In this document: positions 16,232 through 18,755 of the stretch, in pieces
Layout: every line of letters begins with the position of its first letter
How positions within the stretch are numbered: position 1 is the stretch's first letter
Assembly (NCBI GenBank): GCA_036268055.1
Contig: DATAUW010000011.1
Location: 62,001 to 126,000 of the forward strand
Source of the DNA: Verrucomicrobiia bacterium
Lineage (GTDB): Bacteria > Verrucomicrobiota > Verrucomicrobiia > Limisphaerales > Pedosphaeraceae
DNA: 64,000 bases
Reading direction: 5' to 3'
Notes under the pieces: generated by a model
Databases searched by the model: none
Told to the model about the DNA's origin: nothing
The model's input: only the letters and a program-made list of their open reading frames with translations
Position numbers and translations under genes: made by a program

Positions 16232-18046
16232 TTAGTTCACCTTGGCGTCCGTCTTGGCTTGCTCGCGCAGGAGCATGCCGAGCATGCCGTCCATCAGGCC
16301 GTTCGTTCCGCTCGTGCCGCTCACCGAAACATCCGGCACGATGCGCACGTTGCGTTCGCCCACCACTTGCATGAGCTGAAGCATCGTGTAACCCTGCGAA
16401 CCGATCGCTTCCACGCCCGCGCGATACGCCTCGGCCTTCGCATTGCCCGTCGCGCGGATGGCTTCGGCTTCACCCATCGCGTGCAACCGGATCGCTTCCG
16501 CGTCGCCCGTCGCCTGTTTGATGTGCGCGTTCGAATTCAACTCGGCTATGTTCACGCCCTGTTCCGCGCCGACGACTTGTTGCTGGATGTCCGCAATCGC
16601 CGTTTCGCGCACGAGTTGTTGGCGCTGCTTTTGCGCGGCTTCCTGCACCTCGTAGGTCTTGCGCTGTTCTTCCGCGATCTTGCGATCCGTCTGCGTGGTC
16701 ATCAACGCCGCCGGCGGATTGATGTCGCCGATCAATGTATCAATGGCCTGCACGTCGTATGCGCCCAATGCCGTGCGGATATGTTGCGCGGCCTCCGTCT
16801 GCCGGTCGCTGCGCGCGCTGAGAAAATCCAGCACCGTATAATTCTGCGCCGAGTTGCGGAAATAATTTCCCACGATCGGTTGCAGAACATGGTCCACCAG
16901 ATTTTGCATCGAGCCCACGCGCGAGATCACCTTCGGCGCATCCAGCGCGCCCACGTGGATGATCTGCGACACATCCAGGTTGAACGCGAACCCATCGCGC
17001 GAACGCACGGTGATGGACGAGAGCTTCGAATCATAATTATGCGATTCGGTGCGCGTCGCCCAGTTCAACACGATGTTCGTCGTCGGCACACATTCCACGT
17101 TCATCACGCGCGTGTTCACCGGATGTTTGCCGGGATACAGCGGTGTCACCCACACACCCTTGTGACCGGAGTTCACCAGGTCGCCGTGCTTGAAATCCAA
17201 ACCGCTCACGTCTTCGTGTGCCATCCCGACAAACGAGATGACCACGCCCACATGCCCGATCGGAATCTCCAGCATCGGCACCTGCTCGACCTGCACAAAC
17301 CACGGGTTCAAGTTCCACGTGCCCGATAACAGGATCTGCTCCTGCAAACCGCGCCGTCCGCCGCCTTCCAAAAATGCCTGCGCATTCTGGAAATTATCGT
17401 GCGTCGCGATGACCGGCCCGGCGATTTCGCCGCCCTCGATCGGGCGTCCATCCAGCGTCGTCACAATGCCCACCTTGTCCGGCTGGATACGTTGCAACTC
17501 AAGCTGGCTCGGGTGCATGCCATTCTGCTCCGCGTCTTGCGATGTGATCACCGTGAACAACGCCGTGTTGATGCGATACGTCCCGGCCGTGAGAATGCCC
17601 AACTGCCGCCCCTTCTCACCGCCCATCGTCAGGAACTTGCGCGCGTCCTGGAAGTTGTCGCAGTCCACGACTTTCCCCAGAATGCGTTCCGAAGGAATCG
17701 GCGCCCCATCCGCCGCCACAACTAGCGCAATCTCGCCTTGAACCACCACGATCACGCGCACCTTGAGGATGCGATATTGCCAGCTCCAATAACCGTAATG
17801 CAGGCCCGGCGCCAGCGTGTCCGCCTGATAACCCGCTTCTCCCTCCAGCGCAACCAGTTGCCCCGGTGCAAGCGAACGTCCCGAGAAGCGTTTGATCACA
17901 ATCCCCACCTGCCGCTCGTGAATCAGCACCGTGTTCAGGTACATCAGCATCAAAAACGCGGATATCCCAAACACCAGCACATACCAATACCAAGCCACGT
18001 TGATTCCCGCTTCGCTAAGTAACGATAACGCTAACGTAGCCTTCAT
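16232..18046 (-). CDS. Large SPFH/Band 7 (flotillin-like) membrane-anchored protein
   Basis: A 604-residue protein with one N-terminal membrane helix (about residues 15-38, YWYVLVFGISAFLMLMYLN). Two similar modules follow, near 115-175 and 205-260, each with DNFQxAxxFL, GG, and IL-x-x-GT-x-x-(I/L)N. The Band 7 domain comes next (from about IPIGHVGVVISFVG, through NYDSKLSSITVRSRDGFAF). A long charged coiled coil rich in Gln, Glu and Ala (about 455-560) and a Gly/Ser tail complete it. Flotillin-type proteins form oligomers on membranes and organise other proteins or membrane fluidity. The ATG at 18046 has AAAGGAAAGG upstream. Its leader contains a c-di-AMP riboswitch, so cell-wall or osmotic signals probably control it. 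Confidence 0.9.
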   Translation of the reverse strand: MKATLALSLLSEAGINVAWYWYVLVFGISAFLMLMYLNTVLIHERQVGIVIKRFSGRSLAPGQLVALEGEAGYQADTLAPGLHYGYWSWQYRILKVRVIVVVQGEIALVVAADGAPIPSERILGKVVDCDNFQDARKFLTMGGEKGRQLGILTAGTYRINTALFTVITSQDAEQNGMHPSQLELQRIQPDKVGIVTTLDGRPIEGGEIAGPVIATHDNFQNAQAFLEGGGRRGLQEQILLSGTWNLNPWFVQVEQVPMLEIPIGHVGVVISFVGMAHEDVSGLDFKHGDLVNSGHKGVWVTPLYPGKHPVNTRVMNVECVPTTNIVLNWATRTESHNYDSKLSSITVRSRDGFAFNLDVSQIIHVGALDAPKVISRVGSMQNLVDHVLQPIVGNYFRNSAQNYTVLDFLSARSDRQTEAAQHIRTALGAYDVQAIDTLIGDINPPAALMTTQTDRKIAEEQRKTYEVQEAAQKQRQQLVRETAIADIQQQVVGAEQGVNIAELNSNAHIKQATGDAEAIRLHAMGEAEAIRATGNAKAEAYRAGVEAIGSQGYTMLQLMQVVGERNVRIVPDVSVSGTSGTNGLMDGMLGMLLREQAKTDAKVN

Positions 18047-18159
18047 ATGCACCCTTTCCTTTGTAATTACGCCTCGGAACGGCTATTAACCGCGCCTGGG
18101 CGCAATGCATTCAGACTGGGAGAACTTGGGGACCGCGACATGCGGCCCTAGAGGATCGC

Positions 18160-18305
18160 CCTTCCAATCGCCGACGAGGTTAGCTGACGGGCTTGGTCTT
18201 GAAAGTGACCTTGGCCACGGTTACCCGCGCCTCACGCCCCATCCCGGCTACACCGGGAACTGGTTCCCCCGCATTGACCTTCAGGAAGGAAGGCCAACTT
18301 AGGCT
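18160..18305 (-). promoter_or_regulatory. Cyclic-di-AMP riboswitch (ydaO/yuaA class)
   Basis: On the minus strand, in order: a CCTTC-CT-GAAGG hairpin, GCGGGGGAACCA (18261-18272), GGGGCGTGAGGC, and CCCGTCAGCTAACCTCGTCGGC (18170-18191), the highly conserved 3' core of ydaO RNAs. Order and spacing match the c-di-AMP aptamer. It lies about 115 bases before the SPFH start codon. The 5' edge (the P1 strand) is not resolved; it may extend to 18335. In known examples c-di-AMP binding turns expression off. Confidence 0.88.
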
Positions 18306-18446
18306 GCAACTACTTGACACCCTTCCAATCGCACGCGCGCAAGGATTGTCAAATCGAATCAATGCAAATTGCTATCCATCAATAAGATATTTATTGATAA
18401 TTTATTAATCCAAACCGCATATGTTTTTAATCCTCAACCAGAAAAA

Positions 18447-18570
18447 GTGTTTTAAAGCACCCTTGCATGACGATTTTTAGTTTACAGTGAGTTTAGGCGA
18501 AAGAGCAGAAGCGAAGCGACCCGCGAGAGCCTAAAACTCACTGTAAACTAAAAATCCCGCCGCGACGGAG
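18447..18570. repeat. Long hairpin repeat, copy 1
   Basis: Arms at 18472-18498 and 18529-18556 pair over 27 bases with a single bulge; both outer ends read GATTTTTAGTTTA. The 30-base loop is purine-rich. A flank of about 25 bases (GTGTTTTAAAGC) is shared with copy 2. Confidence 0.85.
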
Positions 18571-18628: not shown

Positions 18629-18755
18629 AAAGTATTTCAAAGCGTTCCAGCGCGAGGATTTTTAGTTTATGGCGAGGCTTTGGCGAAGGAGTGGGTCGCT
18701 AGACCCATGACTGAGCCAAAACGAAGCCATAAACTAAAAAGACCGCGCGTACAAA
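18629..18755. repeat. Long hairpin repeat, copy 2
   Basis: Arms TTTTTAGTTTATGGC at 18659-18673 and its exact complement at 18726-18740. Inner pairs are TTTGGC/GCCAAA and GGGTC/GACCC. Same orientation, flank and loop skeleton (GGCGAA-GAG-ACCC-GAGCC) as copy 1. Confidence 0.85.

What the first reader, a model, noticed from the sequence alone, without database searches (positions are those of the whole stretch)
18160..18335. c-di-AMP riboswitch controls a flotillin-like gene
The leader of the SPFH gene contains, in order, all the conserved cores of the ydaO/yuaA c-di-AMP riboswitch, including GGGGGAACCA and GTCAGCTAACCTCG. Known ydaO targets are mostly cell-wall hydrolases, osmolyte and potassium transporters. 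A tandem-domain SPFH membrane organiser is, to my knowledge, not a standard target, and it would tie c-di-AMP to membrane microdomains in Verrucomicrobiota.
Basis: partly seen in the sequence, partly recalled or inferred. Interest (0 to 1): 0.8.

Follow-up and report, generated by a model that had tools for sequence, protein, structure and literature searches.

The report
c-di-AMP riboswitch before SPFH membrane gene
The leader RNA of a bacterial membrane-scaffold gene carries a genuine c-di-AMP sensing switch, and this pairing is kept across the Verrucomicrobiota next to potassium importers, which ties an unstudied SPFH protein to potassium and turgor control.

Summary
RF00379 (c-di-AMP riboswitch) matches window 18315-18154 on the minus strand (51.6 bits, cut-off 38, E 4.5e-9); it is the only copy in the genome, which also encodes a diadenylate cyclase. 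It lies about 110 nt before the start of a 604-aa SPFH (Band 7) gene. The link is not accidental: 39 of 41 close orthologs in the order (Limisphaerales/Pedosphaera group) carry the riboswitch upstream above cut-off, one more at 37.9 bits, and so do all 19 orthologs examined from other Verrucomicrobiota groups; 0 of 19 cyanobacterial or Chloroflexi orthologs do. The linked aptamers covary. Across 148 classifiable riboswitches of the order, every target is a K+ importer (Kup, KimA and KimA-like, Kdp) or one of two SPFH families, with a small zinc-ribbon gene shared between them; some operons read riboswitch-SPFH-KimA or riboswitch-SPFH-kdpAB. So the SPFH gene belongs to a c-di-AMP/K+ regulon. 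No terminator follows the aptamer; how the switch acts on the gene, and its ligand binding, are inferred.

The parts
18154..18315 (-). c-di-AMP riboswitch aptamer (RF00379)
   Evidence: Rfam cmscan 51.6 bits, E 4.5e-9, full model; covariation in 39 SPFH-linked homologs
18261..18270 (-). conserved core GGGGGAACCA
   Evidence: most columns invariant or nearly so in 39 homologs
18175..18188 (-). conserved core GTCAGCTAACCTCG
   Evidence: nearly all columns invariant in 39 homologs
18284..18292 (-). loop CUUCCUUCC, whose last CUUCC can pair with the 3' tail GGAAG (18165-18161) as a pseudoknot
   Evidence: all 5 pairs kept in 39 of 39 homologs, nearly invariant, so no covariation to test it
18347..18352 (-). 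TTGACA, likely -35 box of a dedicated promoter
   Evidence: TTGAC lies 26-70 nt before the aptamer in 30 of 33 SPFH1-first leaders, 1.5 expected; the generic consensus scan found no promoter here
18118..18153 (-). conserved 3' extension CUCUAG-hairpin-GUUCUCCC, putative expression platform
   Evidence: present in nearly all SPFH1, SPFH2, KimA, Kdp and Zn-ribbon leaders, mostly absent from Kup leaders; pairs with the aptamer core in the window MFE fold but not beyond shuffles
18053..18062 (-). Shine-Dalgarno AAAGGAAAGG before ATG 18046
   Evidence: sequence
16232..18046 (-). SPFH1 gene, 604 aa: TM helix (res 3-37), tandem N-terminal repeats (about 104-160 and 190-248), Band 7 domain (260-473), long C-terminal helix (454-548)
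   Evidence: Pfam Band_7 E 2e-25; AlphaFold2 models; repeat self-alignment

Best explanation
The element is a genuine c-di-AMP riboswitch of the ydaO/yuaA class in the 5' leader of a membrane-anchored SPFH gene (SPFH1). The gene belongs to a Verrucomicrobiota c-di-AMP regulon otherwise made of K+ importers (Kup, KimA, Kdp). When K+ is plentiful, c-di-AMP rises, binds the aptamer and lowers SPFH1 expression; when K+ or turgor falls, expression is released together with the importers. Shown: aptamer homology and covariation, conserved position, conserved promoter box, co-regulation and operon linkage with K+ importers in relatives, and a diadenylate cyclase in the genome. Inferred: ligand binding, the OFF direction, control of translation (or Rho-dependent termination) rather than an intrinsic terminator, and the role of SPFH1 as a membrane ring or cage that supports K+ uptake or protects the membrane under turgor change.
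For: RF00379 at 51.6 bits, the single copy in the genome, DAC domain present. 39 of 41 close orthologs with an intact 5' flank carry it on the same strand above cut-off and one more at 37.9 bits. 19 of 19 orthologs from Opitutae, Verrucomicrobiaceae and Methylacidiphilales-type records carry it, 0 of 19 from Cyanobacteria and Chloroflexi; two more from a phylum-wide sample carry it. Covariation: 154 double-changed cells against 44.8 in shuffles. TTGAC box in 30 of 33 leaders. All 148 classifiable riboswitches of the order precede K+ importers or SPFH genes. Operons: riboswitch-SPFH1-KimA (L071, L249, L265, L287) and riboswitch-SPFH1-kdpA(B) (L243, L248, L260). c-di-AMP riboswitches at K+ transporter genes are known, Verrucomicrobia included (PMC6488665), and tested ones act as OFF switches, one of them on translation (PMC9960051).
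Against: No binding or expression data. The expression platform is not resolved: folding with and without the aptamer gave no consistent change at the Shine-Dalgarno site, and pairing of the 3' element with the aptamer core does not clearly exceed shuffles. In this genome the riboswitch stands only before SPFH1, while its kdpA has none and no Kup, TrkH or KimA was found, so K+ co-regulation inside this very genome is not shown. One ortholog lacks the element (L090).
Confidence: 0.85

Rival explanations
1. The aptamer is real, but it acts on the gene through an intrinsic or Rho-dependent transcription terminator rather than through translation.
For: The B. subtilis ydaO switch works by termination (cited in PMC9960051). 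Rho-dependent termination needs no hairpin with a U run and was not testable.
Against: No terminator-like site lies between aptamer and start codon on this strand, and no U run is seen there in the leaders printed.
Confidence: 0.25
2. The riboswitch serves a neighbouring or ancestral K+ transporter gene, and the SPFH gene is a passenger.
For: Some operons place KimA or kdpAB downstream of SPFH1, and one places another SPFH gene first (L084).
Against: In most loci, the window included, SPFH1 is the first gene and no K+ importer was recognised behind it; the next gene in the window is on the other strand. The link holds in 39 of 41 orthologs and across several Verrucomicrobiota groups.
Confidence: 0.07
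3. The element is a degenerate, non-functional relic of a c-di-AMP riboswitch.
For: The window copy scores 51.6 bits, lower than several homologs that reach 60-66 bits within the family.
Against: Both cores are intact, compensatory changes are frequent in the homologs, and promoter box and position are conserved.
Confidence: 0.04

Closest known systems
ydaO/yuaA (kimA) c-di-AMP riboswitch, RF00379
   Same: Full-length covariance-model match, same cores and helices, and K+ importers among the targets of its relatives
   Different: The target here is an SPFH gene; no intrinsic terminator follows; a conserved 3' extension (CUCUAG-hairpin-GNUC[U/A]CCC) is shared with KimA and Kdp leaders of the same order
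C. glutamicum nlpC c-di-AMP riboswitch (PMC9960051)
   Same: Lacks a canonical terminator; translational OFF control was inferred there, with a proposed CTCC/GGAG pairing; CUCC and GGAG both occur in 20 of 32 SPFH1 leaders
   Different: Other phylum and target; the window leader itself has CUCC but a GGAAAGG ribosome site, so that pairing is not clean here
SPFH / Band 7 proteins (stomatin, prohibitin, QmcA, HflK/C, flotillin)
   Same: Band_7 domain (E 2e-25), TM helix, long C-terminal helix; QmcA is the only PDB chain found by sequence
   Different: Two extra tandem N-terminal repeats; no NCBIfam model matched
Major vault protein (eukaryotic vault shell)
   Same: N-terminal tandem repeats align with MVP repeats: VIA Z 8.5, rmsd 3.8, 160 residues for the domain; Z 9.4, rmsd 4.4, 196 residues for the whole model; Foldseek E 9e-5
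   Different: About 8-12% identity, no Pfam Vault match, a TM helix, only two such repeats found by sequence; Foldseek with the domain alone is weak (best E 0.02)

Membership tests
RF00379 c-di-AMP riboswitch | Covariance-model score above the curated gathering score | tested here: met
   51.6 against 38 bits, full model, not truncated
RF00379 c-di-AMP riboswitch | Conserved cores and helices | tested here: met
   Both cores present; in 39 homologs 89.7% of cells pair, covariation score 0.298 against 0.133 shuffled; the 18-27/34-43 helix has 9 of 10 pairs with double changes
RF00379 c-di-AMP riboswitch | Position in a 5' leader, same strand as the gene, with a promoter upstream | tested here: met
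   18154 against ATG 18046; TTGAC box conserved
RF00379 c-di-AMP riboswitch | Organism makes c-di-AMP | tested here: met
   DAC domain PF02457, E 3.9e-40, in the same genome; enzyme activity untested
RF00379 c-di-AMP riboswitch | Binds c-di-AMP | not testable with these tools
   Needs in-line probing or calorimetry
RF00379 c-di-AMP riboswitch | Changes gene expression with c-di-AMP | not testable with these tools
   Needs a reporter; computed accessibility was inconclusive
SPFH / Band 7 superfamily | Band_7 domain above the Pfam cut-off | tested here: met
   90.1 against 23.6 bits
Flotillin family proper | Closest to flotillin by sequence model or fold | tested here: inconclusive
   No NCBIfam model; flotillin complex at Z 4.7 against Z 9.4 for vault protein
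Major vault protein | Vault repeats by sequence model | tested here: not met
   No Vault model among 28 members scanned at E up to 10
Major vault protein | MVP-type repeat fold | tested here: inconclusive
   MVP chains rank first, Z 8.5, 160 residues, rmsd 3.8, but Z near 8 can be a common arrangement and Foldseek E for the domain alone is 0.02

The most novel reading that the evidence does not exclude
SPFH1 is a bacterial, membrane-anchored, vault-like SPFH cage that acts as an accessory of K+ uptake (KimA/Kdp/Kup) in Verrucomicrobiota and is switched by c-di-AMP at the RNA level, so that c-di-AMP controls a membrane scaffold as well as the transporters.
Probability: 0.25. Interest if true: 0.8.

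Novelty: new member of a known kind. Interest (0 to 1): 0.58.

Why it matters
SPFH proteins are in all kingdoms and their precise functions are often unclear. A riboswitch kept upstream of one SPFH family through several Verrucomicrobiota groups, with the same switch governing K+ importers and at times the same transcript, gives a direct, testable physiological context: K+ and turgor. It also extends c-di-AMP signalling to a class of target that I could not find reported, in a phylum where this messenger is little studied.

Tried and rejected
(1) A clean anti-aptamer switch: the 3' element GNUC[U/A]CCC pairs with the aptamer core in the window MFE fold and with aptamer bases in most of 32 leaders, but duplex energies are only weakly better than dinucleotide shuffles (mean z -0.8 for SPFH1, 2 of 33 at p<=0.05), so it is kept as a lead only. 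(2) Shine-Dalgarno accessibility with and without the aptamer: mean 0.45 against 0.41 unpaired, 17 of 32 in the expected direction: inconclusive. (3) Intrinsic terminator: none between aptamer and start. (4) RNAalifold on the expression platform of 22 leaders found little beyond the short hairpin after the aptamer. (5) CUCC/GGAG sequestration as proposed for C. glutamicum: both present in 20 of 32 leaders, not cleanly in the window. (6) Original target lists (Block 2010, Nelson 2013) are not held, so prior mention of an SPFH target is not excluded.

Full report
Observation. A scan of all 64 kb against Rfam 15 gives one match: RF00379, the c-di-AMP (ydaO/yuaA) riboswitch, at 18315-18154 on the minus strand, full model, 51.6 bits against a gathering score of 38, E 4.5e-9. 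It is the only copy in the 5.1 Mb genome. The same genome has one diadenylate cyclase domain (PF02457, E 3.9e-40).

The gene. The next gene on the minus strand is ORF 16232-18052; the likely start is ATG 18046 behind AAAGGAAAGG, 108 nt after the aptamer. Pfam finds a single Band_7 domain (residues 260-473 of 604), NCBIfam nothing, and a profile search of PDB sequences only QmcA. Residues 104-160 and 190-248 are a tandem repeat. The AlphaFold2 model (mean pLDDT 68 for the whole, 91 for the N-terminal part) has a TM helix, these repeats, a poorly predicted SPFH core and a long helix. Its nearest solved structures are chains of major vault protein: Foldseek E 9e-5 and Z 9.4 for the whole model, Z 8.5 for the N-terminal part alone, at 8-12% identity. 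Foldseek with the N-terminal part alone is weak (best E 0.02) and no Pfam Vault model matches. This is a fold lead, not membership. I call the protein SPFH1.

Conservation of the pairing. In 293 genomes of the order, 147 carry RF00379 and 46 carry an SPFH1 relative at E 1e-40 or better. Of 41 orthologs at 72% identity or more whose 5' flank is present, 39 have the riboswitch upstream on the same strand above cut-off. A fortieth, L085, has it at 37.9 bits; L090 has none. Relatives at 36-51% identity have none. The usual distance is 75-200 nt; it is about 360 nt where a zinc-ribbon gene lies between, and 1.6 kb where a second SPFH gene lies between. A scan of GTDB genomes finds orthologs at 70-85% identity in Pedosphaera/Limisphaerales, Opitutae, Verrucomicrobiaceae, Methylacidiphilales, Cyanobacteria and Chloroflexi. 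The element is upstream in all 19 loci examined from Verrucomicrobiota groups outside the order (one record is labelled Bacteroidetes but groups with Methylacidiphilales), and in none of 19 from Cyanobacteria and Chloroflexi. In a quick tree the Cyanobacteria/Chloroflexi proteins form one supported group. In a phylum sample of 388 genomes the ortholog is uncommon; the two further orthologs found there, at 70-73% identity, both have the riboswitch.

Function is maintained. On 39 SPFH1-linked aptamers, 89.7% of cells pair, 154 cells have double changes (44.8 in shuffles) and the covariation score is 0.298 (0.133 in shuffles; 0.05-0.14 with the partners slid by 1-3 columns). The loop CUUCC and the tail GGAAG can pair in 39 of 39, nearly invariant. 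TTGAC lies 26-70 nt before the aptamer in 30 of 33 leaders where SPFH1 is the first gene, 1.5 expected, so the transcript very likely begins just before the aptamer.

The regulon. I fetched the downstream DNA of 150 riboswitches in the order and classified it by tblastn. Of 148 with enough sequence, 63 lead to Kup, 25 to KimA-type permeases, 6 to a second KimA-like permease with a Usp domain, 5 to kdpAB, 38 to SPFH1 and 11 to a second SPFH family (about 490 aa; one of these is followed by SPFH1); Pfam supports the K+ transporter, permease and Band 7 assignments. No other target class appeared. The counts are not an unbiased census, since all SPFH1 loci were fetched on purpose. A small zinc-ribbon gene (80-108 aa) occurs as first gene before SPFH1, Kup or KimA. 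Some transcripts hold both kinds: riboswitch-SPFH1-KimA (L071, L249, L265, L287) and riboswitch-SPFH1-kdpA(B) (L243, L248, L260), with no second riboswitch found in these loci. In the window's own genome there is a kdpA without a riboswitch and no Kup, TrkH or KimA match, so here the switch governs SPFH1 alone.

Mechanism. c-di-AMP riboswitches for K+ transporter genes are known, Verrucomicrobia included (PMC6488665). Tested members are OFF switches, by termination in B. subtilis and, as inferred from reporters, by translation in C. glutamicum (PMC9960051). Here no terminator-like site lies between aptamer and start codon, which favours translational control or Rho. A conserved 3' extension, CUCUAG-hairpin-GNUC[U/A]CCC, follows the aptamer in the SPFH, KimA, Kdp and zinc-ribbon leaders and is mostly missing in Kup leaders. 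In the window MFE fold it pairs with the aptamer core, as a free-state alternative would, but the pairing is not clearly better than in shuffled sequences, and ribosome-site accessibility does not change consistently. The switching step is therefore inferred.

Verdict. The element is an ordinary, well-supported member of a known riboswitch class; its conserved target, an SPFH family inside a K+ regulon, is the new part. No paper in the searchable library joins the two, but the original target lists were not readable. 'Flotillin' and 'microdomain' are not established; K+/turgor homeostasis is the better supported context.

Noticed in passing
16232-18046 (SPFH1), residues 34-268: Tandem N-terminal repeats with a predicted fold nearest to major vault protein in a bacterial membrane SPFH protein that is about 72% identical between Verrucomicrobiota and Nostoc.
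   Followed up: partly
L103, L105, L113, L116, L120, L123, L132, L142, L171, L207, L084: A second SPFH family (about 490 aa, weak HflK resemblance) also lies directly behind c-di-AMP riboswitches; in L084 it precedes SPFH1 in one apparent operon.
   Followed up: partly
L061, L068, L075, L078, L079, L133, L137, L153, L175, L178, L184, L203: A small zinc-ribbon protein (80-108 aa, two CxxC motifs) is the first gene behind the riboswitch, before SPFH1, Kup or KimA; a possible accessory of the regulon.
   Followed up: partly
L143, L160, L168, L173, L195: kdpAB operons behind c-di-AMP riboswitches in this order, although PMC6488665 found riboswitch-controlled kdp restricted to Bacillales.
   Followed up: no
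L183 (G033:C57:1898-6960): Two c-di-AMP riboswitches in a row: riboswitch-KimA-zinc ribbon-riboswitch-SPFH2.
   Followed up: no
18472-18556 and 18659-18740: Two related palindromes (a perfect 23-nt inverted repeat and a 39-nt arm repeat at 77%) stand side by side upstream of the riboswitch; their TTTTTAGTTTA end motif is rare in the genome (7 sites with up to 2 mismatches).
   Followed up: partly
L258-L291 (Nostoc and relatives): In many heterocystous cyanobacteria the SPFH1 ortholog lies just downstream of an ATP synthase beta-subunit gene and a following small gene on the same strand, with no riboswitch.
   Followed up: no
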